A DNA stretch of 64,000 nt from Tupaia tana. Taxonomy: Eukaryota; Chordata; Mammalia; Scandentia; Tupaiidae. The notes beneath the pieces are model-generated. The model was not told the DNA's origin. It saw only the letters and a list, made by a program, of their open reading frames with translations, and did no database searches. Numbering within the stretch: position 1 is the first letter of the stretch; each line of letters starts with the position of its first letter. The DNA lies in NCBI GenBank assembly GCA_026018925.1, contig JAKSZU010000032.1, positions 1-64,000 on the forward strand. Reading direction: 5' to 3'. This document shows, piece after piece, positions 1-64,000 of this stretch. Made by a program: the position numbers and the translations under genes.

Positions 1-706
1 TAACCTAACCTGAAGCCTAAATCAAACCATACAGCTAACCCTAACCCTAGGTGGACACCTTAAGCTCAACCCCAAACCTAACTTGACCCTGACGCTTACT
101 CCAACCGTAACAGTTAACCGAAAACTAACAGTAGCCCTAAACTGACTCCCCTCAAACTAACTTTAAACCTAACCTAACCTGAAGCCTAAATCAAATCATA
201 CACCTAACCCTAACCCTAGGCGGACACCTAAATCTCAACCCCAACCCTAACCTGGCCCTCACGCTAACTCCAACCATAACAGTTTCCCGAAAACTAACTG
301 TAGCCCTAAACTTACTCCCTCAAACTAAGTTCAAACCTAACTTAACCTGAAGCCTAAATCAAACCATACACCTAACCCTAACCCTAGGCGAACACCTTAA
401 GCTCAACCCCAACCCTAACCTGACCTCCAGGCTAACTGCAACCATACCACTGAACCGAAAACTAAGAGTAGCCCTAAACTTACTCCCTCAAACTAAGTTC
501 AAACCTAACCTAACCTGAAGCCTAACTCAAACCATAGACCTAACCCTAACCTTAGGCGGACACCTGAAGCTTAACCACAACCCTAACCTGTCCCTGACGC
601 TATCTCCAACAGTAACACTGAACCGAAAACTAACAGTAGACCTAAACTTACTCCCTCAAACTAAGTTCAAACCTAACCTAACCTGAAGCCTAACTCAAAC
701 CACAGA
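1..706 (+). repeat. Left flank of ordinary monomers
   Basis: About four monomers lie before the 17.1-kb duplication begins. They carry the telomeric core and the usual 168-169 bp spacing. The variant tcaaatcatacac near 190-206 also occurs near 17,802 and 34,910, at the ends of duplication copies A and B. This suggests the flank is related to the right end of the duplicated block and may be the tail of a further copy to the left, but the match is short. There is no gene or other feature here. Confidence 0.8.
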
Positions 707-707
707 C

Positions 708-724
708 CTAACCCTAACCCTAGG
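708..724 (+). repeat. Telomeric core of a monomer with TRF-type sites
   Basis: The stretch ctaaccctaaccctagg is almost perfect telomere repeat (C strand) and is among the least variable parts of nearly every monomer in the window. On the - strand it supplies two matches to YTAGGGTTR, the known half-site of the Myb-type telomere proteins TRF1 and TRF2, at 709-717 and 715-723. A third match lies at 746-754 (caaccctaa on the + strand). This one is given as an example; equivalents recur about every 168 bp. Actual protein binding is inference. Confidence 0.75.
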
Positions 725-887
725 CGGACACCTTAAGCTCAACCCCAACCCTAACCTGACCCTCACGCTAACTCCAACCGTAACACTGAACCGAAAACTA
801 ACAGTAGCCCTAAACTCACTCCCTCCAACTAAGTACAAACCTAACCTAACCTGAAGCCTAACTCAAACCACAGACCTGACCCTAAAC
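720..887 (+). repeat. Representative 168-bp monomer
   Basis: This is one full unit, taken from one CTAG anchor to the base before the next. In order it holds CCTAGG overlapping the anchor, gcggacac, the palindrome CTTAAG, the C-rich block aaccccaaccctaacctgac, a variable middle (gctaactccaaccgtaacac), the stable gaaccgaaaactaacag, a conserved tccaactaagt-type segment, the pentamer-like cctaacctaacctg, and a return to the telomeric core. Four CpG sites recur per consensus unit (gCGg, aCGc, cCGt, cCGa). CCTAGG (an AvrII site) and CTTAAG (an AflII site) recur in most monomers, so a digest should give a 168-bp ladder. The length, 168, is both 28 x 6 and 56 x 3. Confidence 0.95.
743..762 (-). other. 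G-quadruplex-prone segment (example; recurs per monomer)
   Basis: Read on the - strand, this part of the monomer has G tracts of 3, 2, 3 and 4 separated by loops of 3, 3 and 2 bases. That suits a two-tier quadruplex, with i-motif potential on the + strand. The telomeric core beside it adds GGG-TTA-GGG tracts. The arrangement is repeated in most monomers, so the array carries hundreds of such segments, all on one strand. Folding is inferred from known G4 rules. Confidence 0.5.
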
Positions 888-1559: not shown

Positions 1560-1715
1560 CTAGGCGGACACCTCAAGCTAACCCTGACCCTGACGCAAAC
1601 TCCAAACATAATACTGAACCGAAAACTAACAGTAGCCCTAAACTTACTCCCTCAAACTAAGTTCAATCCTAACCTAACCTGAAGCCTAAATGAAACCATA
1701 GACCTAACCCAAACC
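1560..1715 (+). repeat. Short monomer (156 bp), two hexamers deleted
   Basis: CTAG anchors at 1560 and 1716 are 156 bp apart instead of 168. The loss is within the aagctcaaccccaaccctaacc segment, which here reads aagctaaccctgaccctg. The missing 12 bp equal exactly two telomere-like hexamers, as expected from slippage between neighbouring hexamers rather than random deletion. The same short unit is inherited in duplication copy B near 18,667-18,822. Confidence 0.85.
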
Positions 1716-4700: not shown

Positions 4701-7700
4701 TGAAGCCTAAATGAAACCATAGACCTAACACTAACCCTAGGCGGAAACCTTAAGCTTAACCCCAACCCTAACCTGACCCTCACGGTAACTCCAACCGTAC
4801 CACTGAACCGAAAACTAACAGTAACCCTAAACTTACTCCTCATACTAAGTTCAAACCTAACCTAAGCTGAAGCCTAAATCAAACCATACACCTAACCCTA
4901 ACCCTAGGCGGACACCTGAAGCTCAACCGCAACCCTAACCTGACCCTGACTCTTACTCCAACCGTAACACTGATCCGAAAACTAACAGTAGCCCTAAACT
5001 TACTCCCTCAAGCTAAGTTCAAACCTAACCTCACCTGAAGCCTAACTCAAACCACAGACCTAACCCTAACCCTAGGCGGACACCTGAAGCTCAACCCCAA
5101 TCCTAACCTGACCCTGACGCTAACTCCAACCATAACACTGAACCGAAAACTAACAGTAGCCCTAAACTTACTCCCTCAAGCTAAGTTCAAACCTAACCTA
5201 ACCTGAAGCCTAACTCAAACCATAGACCTAACCCTAACCCTAGGCGGACACCTTAAGCTCAACCCCAACCCTAACCTGACCCTCACGCTATCTCCAACCG
5301 TAATACTGAACCGAAAATTAACAGTAGCCCTAAACTTACTTCCTCAAACTAAGTTCAATCCTAACCTAAACTGAAGCCTAAATGAAACCATAGACCTAAC
5401 ACTAACCCTAGGCGGAAACCTTAAGCTTAACCCCAACCCTAACCTCACCCTCACGGTAACTCCAACCGTACCACTGAACCGAAAACTAACAGTAACCCTA
5501 AACTTACTCCCTCAAACTAAGTTCAAACCTAACCTAACCTGAAGCCTAACTCAAACCATGGACCTAACCCTAACCCTAGGCGGACACCTGAAGCTAAACC
5601 CCAACCCTAACCTGACCCTGACGCTATCTCCAACCGTAACACTGAACCGAAAACAAAGAGTAGCCCTAAACTTACTCCCTCAAGCTAAGTTCAAACCTAA
5701 CCTAACCTGAAGCCTAACTCAAACCATAGACCTAACCCTAACCCTACGCGGACACCTGAAGCTCAACCCCAACCCTAACCTGACCCTGACTCTTACTACA
5801 ACTGTAACACTGAACCGAAAACTAACAGTAGCCCTAAACTTACTCCCTCAAACTAAGTTCAATCCTAACCTAACCTGAAGCCTAACTGAAACCATAGACC
5901 TAACTCTAACCCTAGGCGGAAACCTTAAGCTCAACCCCAACCCTAAAATGGCCCTGAGGCTAACTCCAACCATAACAGTTACCCGAAAACTAACAGTAGA
6001 CCTAAAATTACTCCCTCAAAGTAAGTTCAAACCTAACCTAACCTGAAGCCTAAATCAAACCATACACCTAACCCTAACCCTAGGCGGACACCTTAAGCTC
6101 AACCCCAACCCTAACCTGACCCTCACGCTAAATCCAACCGTAACACTGAACCAAAAACTAACAGTAGCCCTAAACTTACTCCCTCAAACTAAGTTCAAAC
6201 CTAACCTAACCTGAAGCGTATCTCAAAACATAGACCTAACCCTAACCCTAGGCGGACACCTTAAGCTCAACCCCAACCCTAACCTGACCCTGACGCTAAC
6301 TCCAAACGTAACACTGAACCGAAAACTAACAGTAGCCCTAAACTTACTCCCTCAAACAAAGGTCAATCCTCACCTAACCTGAAGCCTAACTGAAACCAGA
6401 GACATAACCCTAACCCTAGGCGGACACCTTAAGCTCAACCACAAGCCTAAAATGGCCGTGACGCTAACTCCCACCATAACAGTTACGCGAAAACTAACAG
6501 TAGACCTAAACTTACTCCCTCAAACTAAGTTCAAACCTAACCTAACCTGAAGCCTAAATCAAACCATACACCTAACCCTAACCCTGGGCGGACACCTTAA
6601 TCTCAACCCCAACCCTAACCTGACCATCACGCTAAATCCAACCGTAACACTGAACCGAAAACTAACAGTAGCTCTAAACTTACTCCCTCAAACTAAGTTC
6701 AAACCTAACCTAACCTGAAGCCTAACTCAAACCATAGACCTAACCCTAACCCTAGGCGGACACCTGAAGCTCAACCCCAACCCTAACCTGACCCTGACGA
6801 TATCTCCAACCGTAACACTGAACCGAAAACTAACAGTAGCCCTAAACTTACTCCCTCAAACTAAGTTCAAACCTAACCTAACCTGAAGCCTAACTCAAAC
6901 CATAGACCTAACCCTAACCCTAGGCGGACACCTTAAGCTCAACCCCAACCCTAACATGGCCCTGACGCTAACTCCAACCATAACAGTTACCCGAAAACTA
7001 ACAGTAGCCCTAAACTTACACCCTCAAACTAAGTTCAAACCTAACCTAACCTAAAACCAAATCAAACCATACACCTAACCCTAACCCTAGGCGGACAACT
7101 TAAGCTCAACCCCTACCCTAACCTGACCCTCACGCTAACTCCAACCGAAACACTGAACCGAAAACTAACAGTAGCCCTAAACTTGCTCCCTCAAAGTAAG
7201 TTCAAACCTAACCTAACCTGAAGCCTAACTCAAACCATAGACCTAACCCTAACCCTAGGCGGACACCTGAAGCTCAACCCCAGCCCTAACCTGACCCTGA
7301 CTCTTACTCCAACCGTAACACTGACTGAAACTAACAGTAGCCCTAAACATACTCCCTCAAACTAAGTTCAATCCTAACCTAACCTGAAGCCTAACTGAAA
7401 CCATAGACCTAACCCTAACCCTAGGTGGACACCTTAAGCTCAACCACAACCCTAAAATGGCCATGACGCTAACTCCAACCATAACAGTTACCCGAAAACT
7501 AACAGTAGACCTAAACTTACTCCCTCAAACTAAGTTCAAACCTAACCTAACCTGAAGCCTAAATCAAACCATACACCTAACCCTAACCCTAGGTGGACAC
7601 CTTAAGCTCAACCCCAACCCTAACCTGACCCTCACGCTAAATCCAACCGTAACACTGAACCGACAACTAACAGTAGCCCTAAACTTACTCCCTCAAACTA

Positions 7701-7764
7701 AGTTCAAACCTAACCTAACCTGAAGCCTAACTCAAACCATAGACCTAACCCTAACCCTAGGCGG

Positions 7765-10700
7765 ACACATGAAGCTAAACCCCAACCCTAACCTGACCCT
7801 GACGCTATCTCCAACCGTAACACTGAACCGAAAACAAACTGTAGCCCTAAACTTACACCCTCAAGCTAAGTTCAAACCTAACCTAACCTGAAGCCTAACT
7901 CCAACCATAGACCTAACCCTAACCCTACGCCGACACCTGAAGCTCAACCCCAACCCTAACCTGATCCCGACTCTTACTCCAACTGTAACACTGAACCGAA
8001 AACTAACAGTAACCTAAACTTACTCCCTCAAACTAAGTTCAATCCTAACCTAACCTGAAGCCTAACTGAAACCATAGACCTAACCCTAACCCTAGGCGGA
8101 CACCTTAAGCTCAACCGCAACCCTAAAATGGCCCTGACTCTAACTCCAACCATAACAGTTACCCGAAAACTAACAGTAGACCTAAAATTACTCCCTCAAA
8201 CTAAGTTCAAACCTAACCTAACCTGAAGCCTAAATCAAACCATACACCTAACCCTAACCCTAGGCGGACACCTTAAGCTCAACAACAACCCTAACCTGAC
8301 CCTCACGCTAAATCCAACCGTAACACTGAACCGAAAACTAACAGTAGCCCTAAACTTACTCCCTCAAACTAAGTTCAAACCTAACCTAACCTGAAGCGTA
8401 TCTCAAACCATAGACCTAACCCTAACCCTAGGCGGACACCTTAAGCTAAACCCCAACCCTAACCTGACCCTGACGCTAACTCCAACCATAACAGTTACCC
8501 GAAAACTAACAGTCGCCCTAAACTTACTCCCTCAAACTAAGTTCAAATCTAAACTAACCTGAAGCCTAACTCAAACAAAACACCGAACCCGAACCCTAGG
8601 CGGACACCTTAAGCTCAACCCCAACCCTAACCTGGACCTGAGGCTAAAACCGACCTTAACACTGAACCGAAAACTAACAGTAGCCCTAAACTAACTCCCT
8701 CAACCTAAGTTCAAACCTAACCTAACCTGAAGCCTAACTCAAACCACAAACCTAACCCTAACCCTAGGCGGACACCTGAAGCTCAACCCCAACCCTAACC
8801 TGACCCTGACTCTTACTCCAACCGTAACACTGAACCGAAAACTAACTGTAGCCCTAAACTTACTCCCTCAAGCTAAGTTCAAACCTAACCTCACCTGAAG
8901 CCTAATTCAAACCACAGACCTAACCCTAAACCTAGGCGGACACCTTAAGTTCAACCCCAACCCTAACCGGACCCTGACGCTAACTCCAACCATAACAGTT
9001 ACCCGAAAACTAACAGTAGCCCTAAACTTACTCCCTCAAACTAAGTTCAAACATAACCTAACCTGAAGCCTAAATCAAACCATACACCTAACCCTAACCC
9101 TAGGCGGACACCTGAAGCTCAACCCCAACCCTAACCTGACCCTGACGCTATCTCCAACCGTAACACTGAACCGAAAACTAAAAATAGCCCTAAACTTACT
9201 CCCTCAAACCAAGTTCAAATCTAAACTAACCTGAAGCCTAACTCAAACAATACACCTAACCCTAACCCTAGGCGGACACCTGAAGCTCCACCCCAACCCT
9301 AACCTGACCCTGACGCTATCTCCAACCGAAACACTGAACCGTAAACTAACAGTAGCCCTAAACTTACTCCCTCAAACTAAGTTCACACCTACCCTAACCT
9401 GAAGCCTAACTCAAACCACAGACCTAACCCTAACCCTAGGCGGACACCTTATGCTTAACCCCACCCTAACCAGACCCTGACGCTTACTCCAACCGTAACA
9501 GTTAAACGAAAACTAACGGTAGCCCTAAATTTACTCCCTCAAGCTAAGTTCAAACCTAACCTAACCTGAAGCCTAACTCAAACCATAGACCTAACCCTAA
9601 CCCTAGGCGGACACCTAAAGCTCAACCCCAAACCTAACCTGGCACGTACGCTAACTCCAACAATAACAGTTACCCGAAAACTAACAGTCGCCCTAAACTT
9701 ACTCCCTCAAACTAAGTTCTAACCTAACCTTACCTGAAGCGATAATCAAACCATACACCTAACCCTAACCCTAGGCGGACACCTTAAGCTCAACCCCAAC
9801 CCTAATCTGACCCTCACGCTAACTCCAACCGTAACCCTGAACCGAAAACTAACAGTAGCCCTAAACTTACTCCCTCAAACTAAGTTCAATCCTAACCTAA
9901 CCTGAAGCCTAAATGAAACCATAGACCTAACCCTAACCCTAGGCTGACACCTTATGCTTAACCCCCACCCAAACCTGACCCTGACGCTTACTCCAACCGT
10001 AACACTGAACCGAAAACAAACAGTAGCCCTAAACTTACACCCTCAAACTAAGTTCAAACCTAACCTAACCTGAAGCCTAACTCAAACCATAGACCTAACC
10101 CTAACCCTAGCCGGACACCTGAAGCTCAACCCCAACCTTAACCTGACCCTGACTCTTACTCCAACCGTAACACTGAACTGAAACTAACAGTAGCCCTAAA
10201 CTTACTCCCTCAAACTAAGTTCAATCCTAACCTAACCTGAAGACTAACTGAAACCATAGACCTCACCCTAACCCTAGGCGGACACCTTAAGCCCAACCAC
10301 AACCCTAAAATGGCCGTGACGCTAACTCCAATCATAACAGTTACCCGAAAACTAACAGTAGCCCTAAACTAACTCCCTCAACCTAAGTTCAAACCTAACC
10401 TAACCTGAAGCCTAACTCAAACCATAGACCTAACCCTAACCCTAGGCGGACACCTGAAGCTCAACCCCAACCCTAACATGGCCCTGACGCTAACTCCAAC
10501 CATAACAGTTACCCGAAAACTAACAGTAGCCCTAAACTTACACCCTCAAACTAAGTTCAAACCTAACCTAACCTGAAACCTAAATCAAACCATACACCTA
10601 ACCCTAACCCTAGGCGGACACCTTAAGCTCAACCCCAACCCTAACCTGACCCTCACGCTAAATCCAACCGTAACACTGAACCGACAACTAACAGTAGCCC

Positions 10701-11800
10701 TAAACTTACTCCCTCAAACTAAGTTCAAACCTAACCTAACCTGAAGCCTAACTCAAACCATAGACCTAACCCTAACCCTAGGCGGACACATGAAGCTAAA
10801 CCCCAACCCTAACCTGACCCTGACGCTATCTCCAACCGTAACACTGAACCGAAAACAAACAGTATCCCTAAACTTACACCCTCAAGCTAAGTTCAAACCT
10901 AACCTAACCTGAAGCCTAAGTCAAACCATAGACCTAACCCTAACCCTACGTGGACACCTGAAGCTCAACCCCAACCCTAACCTGATCCCGACTCTTACTC
11001 CAACTGTAACACTGAACCGAAAACTAACAGTAACCTAAACTTACTCCCTCAAACTAAGTTCAATCCTAACCTAACCTGAAGCCTAACTGAAACCATAGAC
11101 CTAACCCTAACCCTAGGCGGACACCTTAAGCTCAACCCCAACCCTAAAATGGCCCTGACGCTAACTCCAACCATAACAGTTACCCGAAAACTAACAGTAG
11201 ACCTAAAATTACTCCCTCAAACTAAGTTCAAACCTAACCTAACCTGAAGCCTAAATCAAACCATACACCTAACCCTAACCCTAGGCGGACACCTTAAGCT
11301 CAACCCCAACCCTAACCTGACCCTCACGCTAAATCCAACCGTAACACTGATCCGAAAACTAACAGTATCCCTAAACTTACTCCCTCAAACTAAGTTCAAA
11401 CCTAACCTAACCTGAAGCCTAACTCAAACTATATACCTAACCCTAACCCTAGGCGGACACCTTAAGCTCCACCCCAAACCTAACCTGGCCCTGACGCTAA
11501 CTCCAACCATAACAATTACCCGAAAACTAACAGTAGACCTAAACTTACTCCCTCAAACTAAGTTCAAACCTAACCTAACCTGAAGCGTATCTCAAACCAT
11601 AGACCTAACCGTAACCCTAGGCGGACACCTTAAGCTCAACCCCAACCCTATCCTGACCCTGACGCTAACTCCAACCATAACAGTTACCCGAAAACTAACA
11701 GTCGCCCTAAACTTACTCCCTCAAACTAAGTTCAAATCTAAACTAACCTGAAGCCTAACTCAAACAATACACCGAACCCGAACCCTAGGCGGACACCTTA
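7765..11800 (+). repeat. Partial 3.02-kb (18-monomer) repeat linking left and right halves of copy A
   Basis: Diagnostic variants are spaced by about 3,021-3,022 bp: cacatgaagctaaac at 7,765 and 10,787, and ctgatcccgactctt at 7,961 and 10,982. The monomer order following each marker is alike for about 1 kb, including the accgaacccgaacccta monomer near 8,583 and 11,774. It is more diverged than the 4,700-bp repeat, so it is probably an older exchange. The edges are approximate. Confidence 0.6.
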
Positions 11801-14800
11801 AGCTCAACCCCAACCCTAACCTGGACCTGAGGCTAAAACCGACCGTAACACTGAACCGAAAACTAAGAGTAGCCCTAAACTTACTCCCTCAAACTAAGTT
11901 CAATCCTCACCTAACCTGAAGCCTAACTGAAACCATAGACCTAACCCTAACCCAAGGCGGACACCTTAAGCTCAACCACAAGCCTAAAATGGCCATGACG
12001 CTAACTCCCACCATAACAGTTACGCGAAAACTAACAGTAGACCTAAACTTACTCCCTCAAACTAAGTTCAAACCTAACCTAACCTGAAGCCTAAATCAAA
12101 CCATACACCTAACCCTAACCCTAGGAGGACACCTTAATCTCAACCCCAACCCTAACCTGACCATCACGCTAAATCCAACCGTAACACTGAACCGACAACT
12201 AACAGTAGCCCTAAACTTACTCCCTCAAACTAAGTTCAAACCTAACATAACCTGAAGCCTAACTCAAACCATAGACCTAACCCTAACCCTAGGCGGCCAC
12301 CTTAAGCTCAACCCCAACCCTAACATGGCCCTGACGCTAACTCCAACCATAACAGTTACCCGAAAACTAACAGTAGCCCTAAACTTACACCCTCAAACTA
12401 AGTTCAAACCTAACCTAACCTGAAACCTAAATCAAACCATACACCTAACCCTAACCATAGGCGGACAACTTAAGCTCAACCCCTACCCTAACCTGACCCT
12501 CACGCTAACTCCAACCGAAACACTGAACCGAAAACAAACAGTAGCCCTAAACTTACACCCTCAAACTAAGTTCAAACCTAACCTAACCTGAAGCCTAACT
12601 CAAACCATAGACCTAACCCTAACCCTAGGCGGACACCTGAAGCTCAACCCCAACCTTAATCTGACCCTGACTCTTACTCTAACCGTAACACTGAACCGAA
12701 ACTAACAGTAGCCCTAAACTTACTCCCTCAAACTAAGTTCAATCTTAACCTAACCTGAAGCCTAACTGAAACCATAGACCTAACCCTAACCCTAGGCGGA
12801 CACCTTAAGCCCAACCACAACCCTAAAATGGCCGTGACGCTAACTCCAATCATAACAGTTACCCGAAAACTAACAGTAGCCCTAAACTAACTCCCTCAAC
12901 CTAAGTTCAAACCTAACCTAACCTAAAGCCTAACTCAAACCATAGACCTAACCCTAACCCTACGCGGACACCTGAAGCTCAACCCCAACCCTAACCTGAT
13001 CCCGACTCTTACTCCAACTGTAACACTGAACCGAAAACTAACAGTAACCTAAACTTACTCCCTCAAACTAAGTTCAATCCTAACCTAACCTGAAGCCTAA
13101 ATGAAACCATAGACCTAATCCTAACCTTAGTCGGACACCTTAAGCTCAACCCCAACCCTAAAATGGCCCTGACGCTAACTCCAAACATAACAGTTACCCG
13201 AAAACTAACAGTAGACCTAAAATTACTCCCTCAAACTAAGTTCAAACCTAACCTAACCTGAAGCCTAAATCAAACCATACACCTAACCCTAACCCTAGGC
13301 GGACACCTTAAGCTCAACCCCAACCCTAACCTGACCCTCACGCTAAATCCAACCGTAACACTGATCCGAAAACTAACAGTATCCCTAAACTTACTCCCTC
13401 AAACTAAGTTCAAACCTAACCTAACCTGAAGCCTAACTCAAACTATATACATAACCCTAACCCTAGGCGGACACCTTAAGCTCCACCCCAACCCTAACCT
13501 GGCCCTGACGCTAACTCCAACCATAACAATTACCCGAAAACTAACAGTAGACCTAAACTTACTCCCTCAAACTAAGTTCTAACGTAACCTAACCTGAAGC
13601 GTATCTCAAACCATAGACCTAACCCTAACCCTAGGCGGACACCTTAAGCTCAACCCCAACCCTAACCTGACCCTGACGCTAACACCAACCATAACAGTTA
13701 CCCGAAAACTAACAGTCGCCCTAAACTTACTCCCTCAAACTAAGTTCAAATCTAAACTAACCTGAAGCCTAACTCAAACAATACACCGAACCCGAACCCT
13801 AGGCGGACACCTTAAGCTCAACCCCAACCTTAACCTGGACCTGAGGCTAAAACCGACCGTAACACTGAACCGAAAACTAACAGTAGCCCTAAACTTACTC
13901 CCTCAAACTAAGTTCAATTCTCACCTAACCTGAAGCCTAACTGAAACCATAGACCTAACCCTAACCCTAGGCGGACACCTTAAGCTCAACCACAAGCCTA
14001 AAATGGCCATGACGCTAACTCCCACCATAACAGTTACGCGAAAACTAACAGTAGACCTAAACTTACTCCCTCAAACTAAGTTCAAACCTAACCTAACCTG
14101 AAGCCTAAATCAAACCATACACCTAACCCTCACCCTAGGCGGACACCTTAATCTCAACCCCAACCCTAACCTGACCATCACGCTAAATCCAACCGTAACA
14201 CTGAACCGACAACTAACAGTAGCCCTAAACTTACTCCCTCAAACTAAGTTCAAACCTAACCTAACCTGAAGCCTAACTCAAACCATAGACCTAACCCTAA
14301 CCCTAGGCGGACACCTGAAGCTCAACCCCAAACCTTACCTGACCCTGACGCTATCTCCAACCGTAACACTGAACCGAAAACTAACAGTAGCCCTAAACTT
14401 ACTCCCTCAAACTAAGTTCAAACCTAACCTAACCTGAAGCCTAACTCAAACCATAGACCTAACCCTAACCCTAGGCGGACACCTGAAGCTCAACCCCAAC
14501 CCTAACATGGCCCTGACGCTAACTCCAACCATAACAGTTACCCGAAAACTAACAGTAGCCCTAAACTTACACCCTCAAACTAAGTTCAAACCTAACCTAA
14601 CCTGAAACCTAAATCAAACCATACACCTAACCCTAACCCTAGGCGGACAACTTAAGCTCAACCCCTACCCTAACCTGACCCTCACGCTAACTCCAACCGA
14701 AACACTGAACCGAAAACAAACAGTAGCCCTAAACTTAAACCCTCAAACTAAGTTCAAACCTAACCTAACCTTAAGCCTAACTCAAACCATAGACCTAACC

Positions 14801-17180: not shown

Positions 17181-17813
17181 CCCAGCCCTAACCTGACCCT
17201 GACTCTTACTCCAACCGTAACACTGAACCGAAACTAACAGTAGCCCTAAACATACTCCCTCAAACTAAGTTCAATCCTAACCTAACCTGAAGCCTAACTG
17301 AAACCATAGACCTAACCCTAACCCTAGGTGGACACCTTAAGCTCAACCACAACCCTAAAATGGCCGTGACGCTAACTCCAACCATAACAGTTACCCGAAA
17401 ACTAACAGTAGCCCTAAACTTACTCCCTCAAACTAAGTTCAAACCTAACCTAACCTGAAGCCTAAATCAAACCATACACCTAACCCTAACCCTAGGCGGA
17501 CACCTGAAGCTCAACCCCAACCCTAACCTGATCCCGACTCTTACTACAACTGTAACACTGAACCGAAAACTAACAGTAACCTAAACTTACTCCCTCAAAC
17601 TAAGTTCAATCCTAACCTAACCTGAAGCCTAACTGAAACCATAGACCTAACCCTAACCCTAGGCGGACACCTTAAGATCAACCCCAACCATAAAATGGCC
17701 CTGACGCTAACTCCAACCATAACAGTTACCCGAAAACTAACAGTAGACCTAAAATTACTCCCTCAAACTAAGTTCAAACCTAACCTAACCTGAAGCCTAA
17801 ATCAAATCATACA

Positions 17814-51630: not shown

Positions 51631-54600
51631 AACTAACAGTAGCCCTAAACTTACTCCCTCAAACTAAGTTCAAACCTAACCTAACCTGAAGCCTAACTCA
51701 AACCATAGACCTAACCCTAACCCTAGGCGGACACCTGAAGCTCAACCCCAACCCTAACCTGACCCTGACGCTATCTCCAACCGTAACACTGAACCGAAAA
51801 CTAACAGTAGCCCTAAACTTACTCCCTCAAACTAAGTTCAAACCTAACCTAACCTGAAGCCTAACTCAAACCATAGACCAAACCCTAACCGTAGGCGGAC
51901 ACCTTAAGCTCCACCCCAACCCTAACCTGGCCCTGACGCTAACTCCAACCATAACAGTTACCCGAAAACTAACAGTCGCCCTAAACTTACTCCCTCAAAC
52001 TAAGTTCAAACCTAACCTAACCTGAAGCGTATCTCAAACCATAGACTTAACCCTAACCCTACGCGGACACCTTAAGCTCAACCCCAACCCTAACCTGACC
52101 GTGACACTAACCCCAACCATAACAGTTACCCGAAAACTAACAGTCGCCCTAAACTTACTCCCTCAAACTAAGTTCCATCCTAACCTAACCTGAAGCCTAA
52201 ATGAAACCATAGACCTAACCCTAACCCTAGGCGGACACCTTATGCTTAACCCCCACCCTAACATGACCCTGACGCTTACTCCAACCGTAACACTGAACCG
52301 AAAACAAACAGTAGCCCTAAACTTACTCCCTCAAACTAAGTTCAAACCTAACCTAACCTGGAGCCTAAATCAAACCATACACCTAACCCTAACCCTAGGC
52401 GGACACCTGAAGCTCAACCCCAACCCTAACCTGACCCTGACTCTTACTCCAAACGTAACACTGAACCGAAAACTAACAGTAGGCCTAAACTTACTCCCTC
52501 AAACTAAGTTCAATCCTCACCTATCATGAAGCCTAACTGAACCATAGACCTAACCCTAACCCTAGGCGGACACCTTATGATTAACAGCCACCATAACCTG
52601 ACCATGACGCTAACTCCAACCGTAACACTGAAACCGAAAACTAACAGTAGCCCTAAACTTACTCCCTCAAACTAACTTCAAACCTAATCTAACCTGAATC
52701 CTAACTGAAACCATAGACCTAACCCTAACCCTAGGCGGACACCTTAAGCTCAACCCCAACCCTAAAATGTCCCTGACGCTAACTACAACCATAACAGTTA
52801 CCCGTAAACTAACAGTAGACCTAAACTTACTCCCTCAAACTAAGTTCAAACCTAACCTAACCTGAAGCCTAAATCAAACCATACACCTAACCCTCACCCT
52901 AGGCGGACACCTTAAGCTCAACCACAACCCTAACCTGACCCTCACGCTAAATCCAACCGTAACACTGAACCGACAACTAACAGTAGCCCTAAACTTACTC
53001 CCTCAAACTAAGTTCAAACCTAACCTAACCTGATGCCTAACTCAAACCACAGAGAGAACCCTAACCCTAGGCGGACACCTGAAGCTCAACCCCAACCCTA
53101 ACCTGACCCTGACGCTATCTCCAACCGTAACACTGAACCGAAAACTAACAGTAGCCCTAAACTTACTCCCTCAAACTAAGTTCAAACCTAACCTAACCTG
53201 AAGCCTAACTCAAACCATAGACCTAACCTAACCCTAGGCGGACACCTTAAGCTCAACCCCAACCCTAACATGGCCCTGACGCTAACTCCAACCATAACAG
53301 TTACCCGAAAACTAACAGTAGCCCTAAACTTATTCCCTCAAACTAAGTTCAATCCTAACCTAACCTGAAGCCTAACTGAAACCATAGACCTAACCCTAAC
53401 CCTAGGCGGACACCTTAAGTTCAACCCCAACCCTAAAATGGCACTGACGCTAACTCCAACCATAACAGTTACCCGAAAACTACCAGTAGACCAAAAATTA
53501 CTCTTTCAAACTAAGTTCAAACCTAACCTAACCTGAAGCCTAAATCAAACCATACACCTAACCCTAACCCTAGGCGGACACCTTAAGCTCAACCCCAAAC
53601 CTAACCTGACCCTCACGCTAAATCCAACCGTAACACTGAACCGAAAAGTAACAGTAGCCCTAAACTTACTCCCTCAAACTAAGTTCAAACCTAACCTAAC
53701 CTGAAGCCTAACTCAAACCATAGACCTAACCCTAACCCTAGGCGGACACCTGAAGCTCAACCCCAACCCTAACCTGACCCTGACGCTATCTCCAACCGTA
53801 ACACTGAAGCGAAAACTAACAGTAGCCCTAAACTTACTCCCTCAAACTAAGTTCAAATCTAAACTAACCTGAAGCCTAACTCAAACAATACACCTAACAC
53901 TAACCCTAGGCGGACACCTGAAGCTCCATCCCAACCCTAACCTGACCCTGACGCTATCTCCAACCGTAACACTGAACCGAAAACTAACAGTAGCCCTAAA
54001 CTTACTCCCTCAAACTAAGTTCAAACCTAACCTAACCTGAAGCGTATCTCAAACCATAGACCTAACCCTAACCCTAGGCGGACACCTTAAGCTCAACCCC
54101 AACCCTAACCTGACCGTGACACTAACCCCAACCATAACAGTTACCCGAAAACTAACAGTCGCCCTAAACTTACTCCCTCAAACTAAGTTCCATCCTAACC
54201 TAACCTGAAGCCTAAATGAAACCATAGACCTAACACTAACCCTAGGCGGACACCTTATGCTTAACCCCCACCCTAACATGACCCTGACGCTTACTCCAAC
54301 CGTAACACTGAACCGAAAGCAAACAGTAGCCCTAAACTTACTCCCTCAAACTAAGTTAAAACCTAACCTAACCTGAAGCCTAAATCAAACCATACACCTA
54401 ACCCTAACCCTAGGCGGACACCTGAAGCTCAACCCCAACCCTAACCTGACCCTGACGCTATCTCCAACCGTAACACTGAACCGAAAACTAACAGTAGCCC
54501 TAAACTTACTCCCTCAAACTAAGTTCAATCCTCACCTATCATGAAGCCTAACTGAACCATAGACCTAACCCTAACCCTAGGCGGACACCTTATGCTTAAC

Positions 54601-55660
54601 AGCCACCATAACCTGACCATGACGCTTACTCCAACCGTAACACTGAACCGAAAACTAACAGTAGCCCTAAACTTACTCCCTCAAAGTAAGTTCAAACCTA
54701 ACCTAACCTGAAGCGTATCTCAAACCATAGACCTAACCCTAACCCTAGGCGGACACCTTAAGCTCAACCCCAACCCTAACCTGACCGTGACACTAACCCC
54801 AACCATAACAGTTACCCGAAAACTAACAGTCGCCCTAAACTTACTCCCTCAAACTAAGTTCCATCCTAACCTAACCTGAAGCCTAAATGAAACCATAGAC
54901 CTAACGCTAACCCTAGGCGGACACCTTATGTTTAACCCCCACCCTAACATGACCCTGACGCTTACTCCAACTGTAACACTGAACTGAAAGCAAACAGTAG
55001 CCCTAAACTTACTCCCTCAAACTAAGTTCAAACCTAACCTAACCTGAAGCCTAAATCAAACCATACACCTAACCCTAACCCTAGGCGGACACCTGAAGCT
55101 CAACCCCAACCCTAACCTGACCCTGACGCTATCTCCAACCGTAACACTGAACCGAAAACTAACAGTAGCCCTAAACTTACTCCCTCAAACTAAGTTCAAT
55201 CCTCACCTATCATGAAGCCTAACTGAACCATAGACCTAACCCTAACCATAGGCGGACACCTTATGATTAACATCCACCATAACCTGACCATGACGCTAAC
55301 TCCAACCGTAACACTGAAACCGAAAACTAACAGTAGCCCTAAACTTACTCCCTCAAACTAACTTCAAACCTAATCTAACCTGAATCCTAACTGAAACCAT
55401 AGACCTAACCCTAACCCTAGGCGGACACCTTAAGCTCAACCCCAACCCTAAAATGTCCCTGACGCTAACTCCAACCATAACAGTTACCCGAGAACTAACA
55501 GTAGACCTAAACTTACTCCCTCAAACTAAGTTCAAACCTAACCTAACCTGAAGCCTAAATCAAACCATACACCTAACCCTCACCCTAGGCGGACACCTTA
55601 AGCTCAACCACAACCCTAACCTGACCCTCACGCTAAATCCAACCGTAACACTGAACCGAC
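51631..55660 (+). repeat. 4,030-bp unit, copy 1
   Basis: This is the first unit of the 24-monomer repeat. Private differences from copies 2 and 3 include TGG instead of TGA at 52,359-52,361, which opens a chance reading frame, ctctttcaaac near 53,504, and a C-to-G change in aaaagtaacag near 53,647. No gene. Confidence 0.85.
54016..55320 (+). repeat. Nested 671-bp (4-monomer) direct duplication
   Basis: Inside each 4,030-bp unit, markers recur 671 bp apart: gcgtatctcaaac at 54,042 and 54,713, and ctatcatgaag at 54,536 and 55,207. That is four monomers less one base. The second copy departs from the first near 55,310-55,320, where it switches to the monomer with gaaaccgaaaac and aactaacttc seen also at about 52.6 kb. 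Equivalent duplications sit at about 58,046-59,350 and 62,076-63,380, so this exchange preceded the spread of the 4,030-bp unit. Confidence 0.8.
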
Positions 55661-58600
55661 AACTAACAGTAGCCCTAAACTTACTCCCTCAAACTAAGTT
55701 CAAACCTAACCTAACCTGAAGCCTAACTCAAACCATAGACCTAACCCTAACCCTAGGCGGACACCTGAAGCTCAACCCCAACCCTAACCTGACCCTGACG
55801 CTATCTCCAACCGTAACACTGAACCGAAAACTAACAGTAGCCCTAAACTTACTCCCTCAAACTAAGTTCAAACCTAACCTAACCTGAAGCCTAACTCAAA
55901 CCATAGACCAAACCCTAACCGTAGGCGGACACCTTAAGCTCCACCCCAACCCTAACCTGGCCCTGACGCTAACTCCAACCATAACAGTTACCCGAAAACT
56001 AACAGTCGCCCTAAACTTACTCCCTCAAACTAAGTTCAAACCTAACCTAACCTGAAGCGTATCTCAAACCATAGACTTAACCCTAACCCTACGCGGACAC
56101 CTTAAGCTCAACCCCAACCCTAACCTGACCGTGACACTAACCCCAACCATAACAGTTACCCGAAAACTAACAGTCGCCCTAAACTTACTCCCTCAAACTA
56201 AGTTCCATCCTAACCTAACCTGAAGCCTAAATGAAACCATAGACCTAACCCTAACCCTAGGCGGACACCTTATGCTTAACCCCCACCCTAACATGACCCT
56301 GACGCTTACTCCAACCGTAACACTGAACCGAAAACAAACAGTAGCCCTAAACTTACTCCCTCAAACTAAGTTCAAACCTAACCTAACCTGAAGCCTAAAT
56401 CAAACCATACACCTAACCCTAACCCTAGGCGGACACCTGAAGCTCAACCCCAACCCTAACCTGACCCTGACTCTTACTCCAAACGTAACACTGAACCGAA
56501 AACTAACAGTAGGCCTAAACTTACTCCCTCAAACTAAGTTCAATCCTCACCTATCATGAAGCCTAACTGAACCATAGACCTAACCCTAACCCTAGGCGGA
56601 CACCTTATGATTAACAGCCACCATAACCTGACCATGACGCTAACTCCAACCGTAACACTGAAACCGAAAACTAACAGTAGCCCTAAACTTACTCCCTCAA
56701 ACTAACTTCAAACCTAATCTAACCTGAATCCTAACTGAAACCATAGACCTAACCCTAACCCTAGGCGGACACCTTAAGCTCAACCCCAACCCTAAAATGT
56801 CCCTGACGCTAACTACAACCATAACAGTTACCCGTAAACTAACAGTAGACCTAAACTTACTCCCTCAAACTAAGTTCAAACCTAACCTAACCTGAAGCCT
56901 AAATCAAACCATACACCTAACCCTCACCCTAGGCGGACACCTTAAGCTCAACCACAACCCTAACCTGACCCTCACGCTAAATCCAACCGTAACACTGAAC
57001 CGACAACTAACAGTAGCCCTAAACTTACTCCCTCAAACTAAGTTCAAACCTAACCTAACCTGATGCCTAACTCAAACCACAGAGAGAACCCTAACCCTAG
57101 GCGGACACCTGAAGCTCAACCCCAACCCTAACCTGACCCTGACGCTATCTCCAACCGTAACACTGAACCGAAAACTAACAGTAGCCCTAAACTTACTCCC
57201 TCAAACTAAGTTCAAACCTAACCTAACCTGAAGCCTAACTCAAACCATAGACCTAACCTAACCCTAGGCGGACACCTTAAGCTCAACCCCAACCCTAACA
57301 TGGCCCTGACGCTAACTCCAACCATAACAGTTACCCGAAAACTAACAGTAGCCCTAAACTTATTCCCTCAAACTAAGTTCAATCCTAACCTAACCTGAAG
57401 CCTAACTGAAACCATAGACCTAACCCTAACCCTAGGCGGACACCTTAAGTTCAACCCCAACCCTAAAATGGCACTGACGCTAACTCCAACCATAACAGTT
57501 ACCCGAAAACTACCAGTAGACCAAAAATTACTCCCTCAAACTAAGTTCAAACCTAACCTAACCTGAAGCCTAAATCAAACCATACACCTAACCCTAACCC
57601 TAGGCGGACACCTTAAGCTCAACCCCAAACCTAACCTGACCCTCACGCTAAATCCAACCGTAACACTGAACCGAAAACTAACAGTAGCCCTAAACTTACT
57701 CCCTCAAACTAAGTTCAAACCTAACCTAACCTGAAGCCTAACTCAAACCATAGACCTAACCCTAACCCTAGGCGGACACCTGAAGCTCAACCCCAACCCT
57801 AACCTGACCCTGACGCTATCTCCAACCGTAACACTGAAGCGAAAACTAACAGTAGCCCTAAACTTACTCCCTCAAACTAAGTTCAAATCTAAACTAACCT
57901 GAAGCCTAACTCAAACAATACACCTAACACTAACCCTAGGCGGACACCTGAAGCTCCATCCCAACCCTAACCTGACCCTGACGCTATCTCCAACCGTAAC
58001 ACTGAACCGAAAACTAACAGTAGCCCTAAACTTACTCCCTCAAACTAAGTTCAAACCTAACCTAACCTGAAGCGTATCTCAAACCATAGACCTAACCCTA
58101 ACCCTAGGCGGACACCTTAAGCTCAACCCCAACCCTAACCTGACCGTGACACTAACCCCAACCATAACAGTTACCCGAAAACTAACAGTCGCCCTAAACT
58201 TACTCCCTCAAACTAAGTTCCATCCTAACCTAACCTGAAGCCTAAATGAAACCATAGACCTAACACTAACCCTAGGCGGACACCTTATGCTTAACCCCCA
58301 CCCTAACATGACCCTGACGCTTACTCCAACCGTAACACTGAACCGAAAGCAAACAGTAGCCCTAAACTTACTCCCTCAAACTAAGTTAAAACCTAACCTA
58401 ACCTGAAGCCTAAATCAAACCATACACCTAACCCTAACCCTAGGCGGACACCTGAAGCTCAACCCCAACCCTAACCTGACCCTGACGCTATCTCCAACCG
58501 TAACACTGAACCGAAAACTAACAGTAGCCCTAAACTTACTCCCTCAAACTAAGTTCAATCCTCACCTATCATGAAGCCTAACTGAACCATAGACCTAACC

Positions 58601-59690
58601 CTAACCCTAGGCGGACACCTTATGCTTAACAGCCACCATAACCTGACCATGACGCTTACTCCAACCGTAACACTGAACCGAAAACTAACAGTAGCCCTAA
58701 ACTTACTCCCTCAAAGTAAGTTCAAACCTAACCTAACCTGAAGCGTATCTCAAACCATAGACCTAACCCTAACCCTAGGCGGACACCTTAAGCTCAACCC
58801 CAACCCTAACCTGACCGTGACACTAACCCCAACCATAACAGTTACCCGAAAACTAACAGTCGCCCTAAACTTACTCCCTCAAACTAAGTTCCATCCTAAC
58901 CTAACCTGAAGCCTAAATGAAACCATAGACCTAACGCTAACCCTAGGCGGACACCTTATGTTTAACCCCCACCCTAACATGACCCTGACGCTTACTCCAA
59001 CTGTAACACTGAACTGAAAGCAAACAGTAGCCCTAAACTTACTCCCTCAAACTAAGTTCAAACCTAACCTAACCTGAAGCCTAAATCAAACCATACACCT
59101 AACCCTAACCCTAGGCGGACACCTGAAGCTCAACCCCAACCCTAACCTGACCCTGACGCTATCTCCAACCGTAACACTGAACCGAAAACTAACAGTAGCC
59201 CTAAACTTACTCCCTCAAACTAAGTTCAATCCTCACCTATCATGAAGCCTAACTGAACCATAGACCTAACCCTAACCATAGGCGGACACCTTATGATTAA
59301 CATCCACCATAACCTGACCATGACGCTAACTCCAACCGTAACACTGAAACCGAAAACTAACAGTAGCCCTAAACTTACTCCCTCAAACTAACTTCAAACC
59401 TAATCTAACCTGAATCCTAACTGAAACCATAGACCTAACCCTAACCCTAGGCGGACACCTTAAGCTCAACCCCAACCCTAAAATGTCCCTGACGCTAACT
59501 CCAACCATAACAGTTACCCGAGAACTAACAGTAGACCTAAACTTACTCCCTCAAACTAAGTTCAAACCTAACCTAACCTGAAGCCTAAATCAAACCATAC
59601 ACCTAACCCTCACCCTAGGCGGACACCTTAAGCTCAACCACAACCCTAACCTGACCCTCACGCTAAATCCAACCGTAACACTGAACCGAC
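55661..59690 (+). repeat. 4,030-bp unit, copy 2
   Basis: This is the second unit; I noticed no private indel in it. It carries the consensus TGA at the position where copy 1 has TGG. It contains the nested 671-bp duplication at about 58,046-59,350. Confidence 0.85.
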
Positions 59691-62600
59691 AACTAACAGT
59701 AGCCCTAAACTTACTCCCTCAAACTAAGTTCAAACCTAACCTAACCTGAAGCCTAACTCAAACCATAGACCTAACCCTAACCCTAGGCGGACACCTGAAG
59801 CTCAACCCCAACCCTAACCTGACCCTGACGCTATCTCCAACCGTAACACTGAACCGAAAACTAACAGTAGCCCTAAACTTACTCCCTCAAACTAAGTTCA
59901 AACCTAACCTAACCTGAAGCCTAACTCAAACCATAGACCAAACCCTAACCGTAGGCGGACACCTTAAGCTCCACCCCAACCCTAACCTGGCCCTGACGCT
60001 AACTCCAACCATAACAGTTACCCGAAAACTAACAGTCGCCCTAAACTTACTCCCTCAAACTAAGTTCAAACCTAACCTAACCTGAAGCGTATCTCAAACC
60101 ATAGACTTAACCCTAACCCTACGCGGACACCTTAAGCTCAACCCCAACCCTAACCTGACCGTGACACTAACCCCAACCATAACAGTTACCCGAAAACTAA
60201 CAGTCGCCCTAAACTTACTCCCTCAAACTAAGTTCCATCCTAACCTAACCTGAAGCCTAAATGAAACCATAGACCTAACCCTAACCCTAGGCGGACACCT
60301 TATGCTTAACCCCCACCCTAACATGACCCTGACGCTTACTCCAACCGTAACACTGAACCGAAAACAAACAGTAGCCCTAAACTTACTCCCTCAAACTAAG
60401 TTCAAACCTAACCTAACCTGAAGCCTAAATCAAACCATACACCTAACCCTAACCCTAGGCGGACACCTGAAGCTCAACCCCAACCCTAACCTGACCCTGA
60501 CTCTTACTCCAAACGTAACACTGAACCGAAAACTAACAGTAGGCCTAAACTTACTCCCTCAAACTAAGTTCAATCCTCACCTATCATGAAGCCTAACTGA
60601 ACCATAGACCTAACCCTAACCCTAGGCGGACACCTTATGATTAACAGCACCATAACCTGACCATGACGCTAACTCCAACCGTAACACTGAAACCGAAAAC
60701 TAACAGTAGCCCTAAACTTACTCCCTCAAACTAACTTCAAACCTAATCTAACCTGAATCCTAACTGAAACCATAGACCTAACCCTAACCCTAGGCGGACA
60801 CCTTAAGCTCAACCCCAACCCTAAAATGTCCCTGACGCTAACTACAACCATAACAGTTACCCGTAAACTAACAGTAGACCTAAACTTACTCCCTCAAACT
60901 AAGTTCAAACCTAACCTAACCTGAAGCCTAAATCAAACCATACACCTAACCCTCACCCTAGGCGGACACCTTAAGCTCAACCACAACCCTAACCTGACCC
61001 TCACGCTAAATCCAACCGTAACACTGAACCGACAACTAACAGTAGCCCTAAACTTACTCCCTCAAACTAAGTTCAAACCTAACCTAACCTGATGCCTAAC
61101 TCAAACCACAGAGAGAACCCTAACCCTAGGCGGACACCTAAAGCTCAACCCCAACCCCTAACCTGACCCTGACGCTATCTCCAACCGTAACACTGAACCG
61201 AAAACTAACAGTAGCCCTAAACTTACTCCCTCAAACTAAGTTCAAACCTAACCTAACCTGAAGCCTAACTCAAACCATAGACCTAACCTAACCCTAGGCG
61301 GACACCTTAAGCTCAACCCCAACCCTAACATGGCCCTGACGCTAACTCCAACCATAACAGTTACCCGAAAACTAACAGTAGCCCTAAACTTATTCCCTCA
61401 AACTAAGTTCAATCCTAACCTAACCTGAAGCCTAACTGAAACCATAGACCTAACCCTAACCCTAGGCGGACACCTTAAGTTCAACCCCAACCCTAAAATG
61501 GCACTGACGCTAACTCCAACCATAACAGTTACCCGAAAACTACCAGTAGACCAAAAATTACTCCCTCAAACTAAGTTCAAACCTAACCTAACCTGAAGCC
61601 TAAATCAAACCATACACCTAACCCTAACCCTAGGCGGACACCTTAAGCTCAACCCCAAACCTAACCTGACCCTCACGCTAAATCCAACCGTAACACTGAA
61701 CCGAAAACTAACAGTAGCCCTAAACTTACTCCCTCAAACTAAGTTCAAACCTAACCTAACCTGAAGCCTAACTCAAACCATAGACCTAACCCTAACCCTA
61801 GGCGGACACCTGAAGCTCAACCCCAACCCTAACCTGACCCTGACGCTATCTCCAACCGTAACACTGAAGCGAAAACTAACAGTAGCCCTAAACTTACTCC
61901 CTCAAACTAAGTTCAAATCTAAACTAACCTGAAGCCTAACTCAAACAATACACCTAACACTAACCCTAGGCGGACACCTGAAGCTCCATCCCAACCCTAA
62001 CCTGACCCTGACGCTATCTCCAACCGTAACACTGAACCGAAAACTAACAGTAGCCCTAAACTTACTCCCTCAAACTAAGTTCAAACCTAACCTAACCTGA
62101 AGCGTATCTCAAACCATAGACCTAACCCTAACCCTAGGCGGACACCTTAAGCTCAACCCCAACCCTAACCTGACCGTGACACTAACCCCAACCATAACAG
62201 TTACCCGAAAACTAACAGTCGCCCTAAACTTACTCCCTCAAACTAAGTTCCATCCTAACCTAACCTGAAGCCTAAATGAAACCATAGACCTAACACTAAC
62301 CCTAGGCGGACACCTTATGCTTAACCCCCACCCTAACATGACCCTGACGCTTACTCCAACCGTAACACTGAACCGAAAGCAAACAGTAGCCCTAAACTTA
62401 CTCCCTCAAACTAAGTTAAAACCTAACCTAACCTGAAGCCTAAATCAAACCATACACCTAACCCTAACCCTAGGCGGACACCTGAAGCTCAACCCCAACC
62501 CTAACCTGACCCTGACGCTATCTCCAACCGTAACACTGAACCGAAAACTAACAGTAGCCCTAAACTTACTCCCTCAAACTAAGTTCAATCCTCACCTATC

Positions 62601-63720
62601 ATGAAGCCTAACTGAACCATAGACCTAACCCTAACCCTAGGCGGACACCTTATGCTTAACAGCCACCATAACCTGACCATGACGCTTACTCCAACCGTAA
62701 CACTGAACCGAAAACTAACAGTAGCCCTAAACTTACTCCCTCAAAGTAAGTTCAAACCTAACCTAACCTGAAGCGTATCTCAAACCATAGACCTAACCCT
62801 AACCCTAGGCGGACACCTTAAGCTCAACCCCAACCCTAACCTGACCGTGACACTAACCCCAACCATAACAGTTACCCGAAAACTAACAGTCGCCCTAAAC
62901 TTACTCCCTCAAACTAAGTTCCATCCTAACCTAACCTGAAGCCTAAATGAAACCATAGACCTAACGCTAACCCTAGGCGGACACCTTATGTTTAACCCCC
63001 ACCCTAACATGACCCTGACGCTTACTCCAACTGTAACACTGAACTGAAAGCAAACAGTAGCCCTAAACTTACTCCCTCAAACTAAGTTCAAACCTAACCT
63101 AACCTGAAGCCTAAATCAAACCATACACCTAACCCTAACCCTAGGCGGACACCTGAAGCTCAACCCCAACCCTAACCTGACCCTGACGCTATCTCCAACC
63201 GTAACACTGAACCGAAAACTAACAGTAGCCCTAAACTTACTCCCTCAAACTAAGTTCAATCCTCACCTATCATGAAGCCTAACTGAACCATAGACCTAAC
63301 CCTAACCATAGGCGGACACCTTATGATTAACATCCACCATAACCTGACCATGACGCTAACTCCAACCGTAACACTGAAACCGAAAACTAACAGTAGCCCT
63401 AAACTTACTCCCTCAAACTAACTTCAAACCTAATCTAACCTGAATCCTAACTGAAACCATAGACCTAACCCTAACCCTAGGCGGACACCTTAAGCTCAAC
63501 CCCAACCCTAAAATGTCCCTGACGCTAACTCCAACCATAACAGTTACCCGAGAACTAACAGTAGACCTAAACTTACTCCCTCAAACTAAGTTCAAACCTA
63601 ACCTAACCTGAAGCCTAAATCAAACCATACACCTAACCCTCACCCTAGGCGGACACCTTAAGCTCAACCACAACCCTAACCTGACCCTCACGCTAAATCC
63701 AACCGTAACACTGAACCGAC
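59691..63720 (+). repeat. 4,030-bp unit, copy 3
   Basis: This is the third unit, with two compensating single-base indels: a lost C in ttaacagcaccata near 60,649 and a gained C in ccaacccctaacc near 61,156. The net length is unchanged. It also has ggacacctaaag near 61,139 where the other copies have ggacacctgaag. Confidence 0.85.
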
Positions 63721-64000
63721 AACTAACAGTAGCCCTAAACTTACTCCCTCAAACTAAGTTCAAACCTAACCTAACCTGAAGCCTAACTCAAACCATAGAC
63801 CTAACCCTAACCCTAGGCGGACACCTGAAGCTCAACCCCAACCCTAACCTGACCCTGACGCTATCTCCAACCGTAACACTGAACCGAAAACTAACAGTAG
63901 CCCTAAACTTACTCCCTCAAACTAAGTTCAAACCTAACCTAACCTGAAGCCTAACTCAAACCATAGACCAAACCCTAACCGTAGGCGGACACCATAAGCT
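63721..64000 (+). repeat. 4,030-bp unit, partial copy 4
   Basis: About 280 bp of a fourth unit, cut by the window edge. It keeps the order of the earlier copies, including accaaaccctaaccgtagg, but reads accataagct at the very end where the others read accttaagct. Confidence 0.8.

What the first reader, a model, noticed from the sequence alone, without database searches (positions are those of the whole stretch)
1..64000. A 168-bp satellite monomer that is 28 degenerate telomere hexamers
The monomer divides without remainder into 28 hexamers. In fixed phase a consensus matches CTAACC at about 107 of 168 positions by hand count, while its base composition predicts about a third. Four of the 28 are at or next to perfect telomere repeats, and the rest drift by one to five changes. 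This suggests that a stretch of about 28 telomere repeats decayed, was fixed as a unit, and only then became a satellite. It would be a telomere-to-satellite conversion with the ancestral register still readable. I do not recognise this satellite by name.
Basis: partly seen in the sequence, partly recalled or inferred. Interest (0 to 1): 0.78.

Follow-up and report, generated by a model that had tools for sequence, protein, structure and literature searches.

The report
Chromosome-end satellite made from telomere repeats
A 168-base DNA unit, repeated hundreds of thousands of times in what looks like a mammal's genome, is built from worn-down copies of the chromosome-tip repeat, and at several places it still runs directly out of a telomere-like stretch.

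Summary
The window is one unbroken 168-bp satellite (381 monomers). Its consensus matches CTAACC in fixed phase at 107 of 168 positions; 20,000 dinucleotide shuffles gave 64.7±4.0, maximum 88. With gaps allowed, CCCTAA (vertebrate TTAGGG) scores best of 580 hexamer classes tested. The signal runs through the monomer except its last ~30 bp.

The window starts a 4.19-Mb contig of an unnamed 2.95-Gb genome, by my reading a mammal's. The satellite is about 61 Mb, ~2% of the assembly. At 8 of 8 contacts collected without choosing direction, a degenerate TTAGGG tract and the satellite have the same polarity; 5 of 6 joints not chosen for it enter the monomer at its telomeric core. Related junctions recur on six contigs. 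The satellite lies at 6 of 40 sampled ends of chromosome-size contigs.

Best reading: a subterminal satellite grown from proximal telomere variant repeats. Telomere ancestry is well supported. Telomere-like and subterminal satellites are known kinds.

The parts
1..64000 (+). Uninterrupted 168-bp satellite array (381 monomers), C-rich strand on +; no other sequence in the window
   Evidence: TRF row 1-64000 period 168; wraparound alignment; identity of monomers to consensus mean 0.942, range 0.875-0.988; longest stop-free stretch 111 codons
1..169 (+). First full monomer as an example (169 bp here)
   Evidence: read directly; the consensus start TAACCTAACCTGAAGCC recurs at 170
35..51 (+). Telomeric core of the first monomer, CTAACCCTAACCCTAGG; most joints to telomere tracts read elsewhere in the genome enter here
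   Evidence: sequence; hexamers 6-8 of the consensus; joints compared by eye
4820..18019 (+). Block repeated at +17,108 bp (about 102 monomers) with 99.56% identity: recent large-unit duplication; 578-4861 also repeats at +17,107 with 99.21%
   Evidence: monomer lag 102 is the most alike (0.937)
51288..64000 (+). Roughly three tandem copies of a 4,030-bp higher-order unit (24 monomers), 99.4% alike where 51288-56638 and 57103-59971 are compared with +4,030

Best explanation
This is a subterminal satellite, probably of a mammal, whose monomer descends from proximal telomere variant repeats. A stretch of TTAGGG and its variants, about 28 hexamers long, diverged; a ~168-bp piece was amplified by unequal exchange or break-induced copying into megabase blocks; blocks then spread between chromosome ends through the shared telomeric core and subtelomeric duplications. 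Shown here: the hexamer register, the polarity and nature of the junctions read, the abundance, recent block duplications, and related junctions on six contigs. Inferred: the direction telomere to satellite, the amplification mechanism, spread between ends, and a cap-like heterochromatin role of the kind proposed for other subterminal satellites. No long reading frame is present in the window (longest stop-free stretch 111 codons).
For: 107 of 168 fixed-phase matches, none of 20,000 shuffles. CCCTAA best of 580 hexamer classes tested with gaps, 141 against 113 for the next. Signal significant in hexamers 1-8, 9-18 and 19-28 separately. 8 of 8 contacts between telomere-like tract and satellite found without choosing polarity are co-oriented (C110, C309, C414, C453, C519, C531, C641, C642; at C309 the joint itself was not read). 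Of six joints of tract to satellite found without a junction word, five enter the monomer at its telomeric core (C414, C453, C519, C531, C642; C110 does not; by eye). At C641 the contig begins with telomere repeats and TCAGGG variants, then the satellite. At C608 a tract of at least 165 perfect TTAGGG starts 5.6 kb before the right end, after a gap, with co-oriented satellite at 1.6 Mb. Ends C264R and C297R stop in sequence 97.8% and 96.1% like DNA upstream of the junctions in C110 and C453. Abundance about 364,000 monomers, 61 Mb, 2.07%.
Against: No intermediate between telomere tract and monomer was found. Within the array, variants at the 61 non-telomeric columns do not lean to the telomere base (286 of 1512 seen, 511 expected), so nothing shows continuing contact with telomere sequence inside the array. 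The 8 contacts are not all independent: C414, C519 and C642 have related junctions (92-99% alike). Of 6 satellite-bearing ends among 40 sampled, the G-rich strand points outward at 4 and inward at 2. Some blocks do not reach a contig end (C111 at 54.26 Mb, C309 at 0.74 Mb, C531 where other sequence is met about 15 kb beyond the joint, C753 whose right end is not satellite). 11 of 21 telomere-like tracts that I read have no satellite next to them in the 0.3-3 kb read. The last ~30 bp of the monomer are not clearly telomeric.
Confidence: 0.78

Rival explanations
1. A pre-existing, unrelated C/A-rich subtelomeric satellite captured a few telomere hexamers (the core) by exchange with chromosome ends; the remaining hexamer rhythm is chance or composition.
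For: Most joints read lie at the core; hexamers 24-28 show no in-phase telomere signal; exchange between ends is suggested by related junctions on six contigs.
Against: Hexamers 9-28, without the core, still match in phase at 69 of 120 against 40.5±5.6 in shuffles, and hexamers 14-19 and 20-24 are each significant.
Confidence: 0.1
2. Stepwise growth: a few variant telomere hexamers were duplicated into larger units (around 78/90 bp), then doubled to 168 bp, so that the monomer was never 28 independent telomere hexamers.
For: Identity at lag 78 is 0.571 against a permutation mean of 0.471; hexamer-order permutation P=0.018 for the largest lag, 0.0004 for lag 78 taken alone; TRF also reports 78 and 90 periods.
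Against: A local self-alignment test is not significant (44 of 300 permutations reach the value); lag 78 was picked after seeing the data.
Confidence: 0.35
3. One reading: 28 telomere repeats decayed in place, were fixed as a unit, and only then amplified, with no later link to telomeres.
For: The register is kept over most of the monomer; array variants do not lean to telomere bases.
Against: No decayed single-copy ancestor seen in 12 tracts; satellite blocks still touch telomere-like tracts on several contigs, so decay and amplification may overlap in time.
Confidence: 0.4
4. Another hexamer (for example AAACCT) founded the satellite and the likeness to TTAGGG is accidental.
For: Ungapped, AAACCT matches 108 against 107.
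Against: With single-base slips allowed CCCTAA scores 141, AAACCT 113; real telomere-like tracts adjoin the array in matching polarity.
Confidence: 0.03

Closest known systems
FA-SAT, major satellite of the domestic cat
   Same: Major satellite of a mammal placed mainly at telomeres (PMC6379292, passages read). I recall, from no call, that its 483-bp unit was described as largely variants of TAACCC (Fanning 1987, not held).
   Different: Unit length 168, not 483 (recalled); FA-SAT is described as GC-rich with a CpG island, here GC is 0.46 and CpG observed/expected 0.62. The sequences were not compared: no FA-SAT sequence was available to me.
MarmoSAT, subterminal satellite of marmosets
   Same: 170/171-bp unit near almost all chromosome ends, 1.5-1.8% of the assembly, signs of ectopic exchange between ends (PMC13041921, passages read).
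   Different: That text had no occurrence of TTAGGG or telomere-like in my find; sequences not compared.
StSat/pCht subterminal caps of African great apes
   Same: Large subterminal arrays; virtually identical caps on non-homologous chromosomes, ectopic recombination (PMC12758386, abstract and passages).
   Different: 32-bp unit, AT-rich (PMC7767330, passages); punctuated by duplicated spacers; no telomere-derived monomer described in what I read.
Interstitial/heterochromatic telomeric sequences (ITS)
   Same: Degenerate TTAGGG tracts away from tips, several in this genome.
   Different: ITS keep the short telomere unit as the repeat; here the repeat is 168 bp and a run of CCCTAA never exceeds 2 in the window.

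Membership tests
Telomere-derived satellite | Monomer matches the telomere hexamer in register beyond chance | tested here: met
Telomere-derived satellite | The telomere hexamer beats other short units | tested here: met
   Gapped score 141: best of 580 hexamer classes (at most 2 G) and above the best of 186 pentamer (75) and 1773 heptamer (63) classes. Ungapped, AAACCT is one match ahead
Telomere-derived satellite | Intermediate or ancestral single-copy tract found | tested here: not met
   12 tracts compared; the 2 best reached by 5 of 200 block shuffles, both rich in TCAGGG
Subterminal satellite (StSat/MarmoSAT-like cap) | Long arrays at chromosome ends | tested here: inconclusive
   6 of 40 sampled ends of chromosome-size contigs carry it; none of the 40 shows three telomere hexamers in a row in the 180-300 bases checked, so ends are probably incomplete; interstitial blocks exist (C111, C309)
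Subterminal satellite (StSat/MarmoSAT-like cap) | Near-identical copies on non-homologous ends | tested here: inconclusive
   C753 and C975 (112 and 168 Mb) share a junction 98.5% alike over 200 bases; C642 is 93-95% like them; C642 and C730 are identical over 198 bases and may be one locus. That the contigs are different, non-homologous chromosomes is inferred
Subterminal satellite (StSat/MarmoSAT-like cap) | Heterochromatic marks, methylation, cytological cap | not testable with these tools
   needs chromatin or FISH data
FA-SAT | 483-bp unit (recalled) of related sequence | tested here: not met
   Unit is 168 bp; sequence comparison not possible
Interstitial telomeric sequence | Tandem TTAGGG as the repeating unit | tested here: not met
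   CCCTAA in the window: 931 single copies and 1 run of two

The most novel reading that the evidence does not exclude
In this genome the proximal telomere acts as a nursery of satellites: the 168-bp family, a second degenerate family with 25/31/37-bp spacings (TTAGGG units plus TTTAGGGATAGTG) and a 215-bp unit carrying 5-8 perfect CCCTAA all came from telomere tracts, and the 168-bp blocks, with about 2.3 TRF-type sites (YTAGGGTTR, recalled) per monomer in telomere polarity, still bind shelterin and serve as an extended cap.
Probability: 0.12. Interest if true: 0.8.

Novelty: new variant of a known kind. Interest (0 to 1): 0.52.

Why it matters
How satellites are born is rarely visible because the founding sequence is usually lost. 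Here the founder is recognisable, its register and polarity are kept, and telomere-variant tracts still run into the satellite on several contigs. That makes a telomere-to-satellite transition testable by comparing close relatives, and it gives a case of large, probably subterminal arrays whose possible shelterin binding can be measured.

Tried and rejected
Naming the satellite: no repeat library was on hand. Exact words from the monomer found nothing in viral contigs or prokaryote genomes, and blastn of window 3000-3700 against plasmids found nothing. Searching papers for six 12-14-letter monomer words returned three papers, by their titles unrelated. Searches for '168 bp' satellites, for FA-SAT and for telomere-derived or terminal satellites by phrase listed no paper that I recognised, from the listing, as describing this satellite. 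This covers only the open-licence library.

Plant (CCCTAAA) and insect (CCTAA) telomere units: tested with gaps, clearly worse (63 and 75 against 141).

Conversion towards telomere sequence inside the array: rejected (286 variants seen against 511 expected).

Special conservation of TRF-type sites: weak. Site columns 0.970 against 0.937 elsewhere; the three sites rank 15, 29 and 64 of 168 windows. The site consensus YTAGGGTTR is recalled.

Proto-monomer inside telomere tracts: not found. Internal duplication at 78 bp: inconclusive. Coding role: no stop-free stretch over 111 codons in the window.

Species: not established. A 16,812-bp contig carries mitochondrial genes; that they look mammalian is my reading and recollection. 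Its COX1 matches PDB cytochrome c oxidase subunit 1 chains, whose species the answer does not name.
Full report
What was checked. The window is a single satellite array from first to last base: TRF gives 1-64000, period 168, 381.4 copies, 89% matches. The wraparound consensus is 168 bp and monomers are on average 94.2% identical to it. Composition predicts 55.8, and the best phase of 20,000 shuffles reaches at most 81 (mononucleotide) or 88 (dinucleotide).

Which hexamer, and how much of the monomer. Ungapped, AAACCT matches one position more than AACCCT (108 against 107). With gaps, CCCTAA scores 141, the next of 580 hexamer classes (those with at most 2 G) 113, the best pentamer 75 and the best heptamer 63. 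The gapped alignment needs two insertions and two deletions, so the exact 28 x 6 length is a net result. Cut into segments, the in-phase signal is strong in hexamers 1-8, 2-5, 9-18, 14-19 and 20-24, weaker in 19-28 (P=0.008) and 8-13 (P=0.033, where a shifted phase fits better), and absent in hexamers 24-28 (10 of 30, P=0.61; gapped P=0.04). Three hexamers are perfect and seven are one change away.

Where the window lies. It is the first 64 kb of contig C453 (4,187,571 bp) of an assembly of 2.948 Gb in 1198 contigs. Spot reads along C453 are satellite on + up to 1.70 Mb and on - at those from 1.8 Mb that are satellite; the reads at 3.169, 3.395-3.405 and 3.416-3.4165 Mb and the first 0.4 kb of the last 10 kb are not satellite. 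A conserved 28-base word with up to 2 mismatches occurs 172,858 + 168,879 times in the genome, its reversed control 0 times. The same word finds 358 places in the window's 381 monomers, which scales to about 364,000 monomers, 61 Mb, 2.07% of the assembly; this assumes the window is typical. Contig C1198 (16,812 bp) carries mitochondrial genes that look mammalian to me; its COX1 matches PDB cytochrome c oxidase chains over the full stretch given. The species was not identified.

Junctions with telomere-like tracts. I read 21 telomere-like tracts: 11 from the places listed, 9 of the 100 listed (140 in all), and 1 met at a satellite edge (C110). Of these, 8 touch or closely adjoin the satellite (C110, C309, C414, C453 at 3.4165 Mb, C519, C531, C641, C642); 1 lies inside the array (C337); 1 is a tract of at least 165 perfect TTAGGG starting 5.6 kb before the right end of C608, after a gap, with co-oriented satellite at 1.6 Mb in the same contig; and 11 have no satellite beside them in the 0.3-3 kb read. 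A run of four TTAGGG inside satellite at C111:54.26 Mb is not counted. In all 8 contacts the G-rich strand of tract and satellite is the same. At C309 the last listed tract word is at 735,116 and satellite was read at 736,001; the joint itself was not read. C414, C519 and C642 have related junctions, so the 8 are about 6 independent cases. Three more joints (C730, C753, C975) were found with a word that already had this polarity and are not counted. The usual order is non-satellite sequence, then TTAGGG with variants such as TCAGGG, CTAGGG, TTGGGG or TACGGG, then satellite; at C641 the contig starts with telomere repeats and variants and the satellite follows. Of the six tract-to-satellite joints read that were not found by a junction word, five enter the monomer at its telomeric core (C414, C453, C519, C531, C642) and C110 enters elsewhere; this is by eye.

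Chromosome ends. I sampled both ends of 20 chromosome-size contigs (28 to 268 Mb; whether there are more I did not check), 40 ends in all. Satellite is present at 6 (C275 right, C297 left, C397 left, C420 left, C642 left, C975 right), the 314-bp second satellite at 4 (C220, C242, C364, C753, all left), and three telomere hexamers in a row at none. Relative to the contig end the G-rich strand points outward at 4 of the 6 and inward at 2 (C297 left, C397 left), a result against a strict rule; scaffold errors could explain it but I did not test that. The right end of C264 stops in sequence 97.8% identical to C110:4.8-5.0 kb, about 16 kb before the tract there (not all of the stretch between was read), and the right end of C297 in sequence 96.1% identical to the DNA about 0.1 kb before the tract in C453. 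Some blocks do not reach a contig end (C111 at 54.26 Mb; C309 at 0.74 Mb; C531, where a read 15 kb beyond the joint is not satellite; C753, whose right end, 0.9 Mb beyond the joint, is not satellite). Junctions on C414, C519, C753 and C975 are 96.5-100% alike over 93-200 bases; C642 and C730 are identical to each other over 198 bases (perhaps one locus assembled twice) and 91-95% like the others. This points to exchange between ends.

Array dynamics. The window holds a 13.2-kb block repeated at +17,108 bp with 99.56% identity and roughly three copies of a 4,030-bp unit at 99.4%. Monomers at distance 102 are most alike (0.937); distances 24, 28, 12 and 16 are slightly above the median (0.909-0.912 against 0.901). 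So large-unit amplification is recent. In C337 one monomer carries six CCCTAA in a row, and the telomere-rich word there recurs at two further places, each 2,334 bp from the next (not read), which suggests that the telomeric core can expand and be amplified.

Order of events. I looked for an ancestor: 12 telomere-like tracts were aligned to the monomer and compared with 200 block shuffles each; in 10 the score was reached by 20 or more shuffles and in 2 (C453 and C297, both rich in TCAGGG) by 5. So no proto-monomer is shown. An internal duplication at 78 bp has P=0.018 after allowing for the choice of lag, but a local self-alignment test gave 44 of 300. At the 61 non-telomeric columns array variants do not lean to the telomere base (286 seen, 511 expected), so the register looks inherited, not renewed.

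What it may do. Each monomer holds on average 2.34 YTAGGGTTR sites on the G-rich strand (890 in the window, 28.1±4.1 in 20 shuffles, none on the other strand), but these columns are only slightly better conserved than the rest. Shelterin binding is possible and untested. The longest stop-free stretch in the window is 111 codons. By analogy with ape and marmoset subterminal satellites (abstract and passages) the likely consequence is terminal heterochromatin with frequent exchange between ends.

Comparison. FA-SAT of the cat, MarmoSAT and StSat are the nearest known satellites. FA-SAT lies mainly at telomeres (passages); that it is built of TAACCC variants is my recollection and not from a call. 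MarmoSAT has a similar unit length, share of the genome and position (passages). I could compare no sequence with any of them. I rate this a new variant of a known kind.

Noticed in passing
L055 (G000:C508:9801-12600): A different GC-rich tandem repeat of about 215 bp, each unit with 5-8 perfect CCCTAA, next to an assembly gap.
   Followed up: partly
L061 (C264:61.08 Mb), L067 (C66), L068 (C199): A second degenerate telomere-like family with spacings of 25, 31 and 37 bp (TTAGGG units plus TTTAGGGATAGTG). Words ending TTAGGGA on other small contigs may belong to it; they were not read.
   Followed up: partly
L022, L023, L025, L026, L029, L030; left ends of C220, C242, C364, C753 and C608: Another abundant satellite with period about 314 bp at several contig ends; possibly centromeric.
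   Followed up: no
L064 (C337:268501-270000); words also at C337:264422 and 266756: A monomer in which part is replaced by six CCCTAA in a row; the telomere-rich word recurs every 2,334 bp.
   Followed up: partly
G000:C453, between 1.70 and 1.80 Mb: The satellite changes strand, G-rich strands pointing apart; either a real inversion or an assembly join.
   Followed up: no
L048, L066: By eye, a tRNA-like SINE of about 250 bp; it could help to identify the order of mammal.
   Followed up: no
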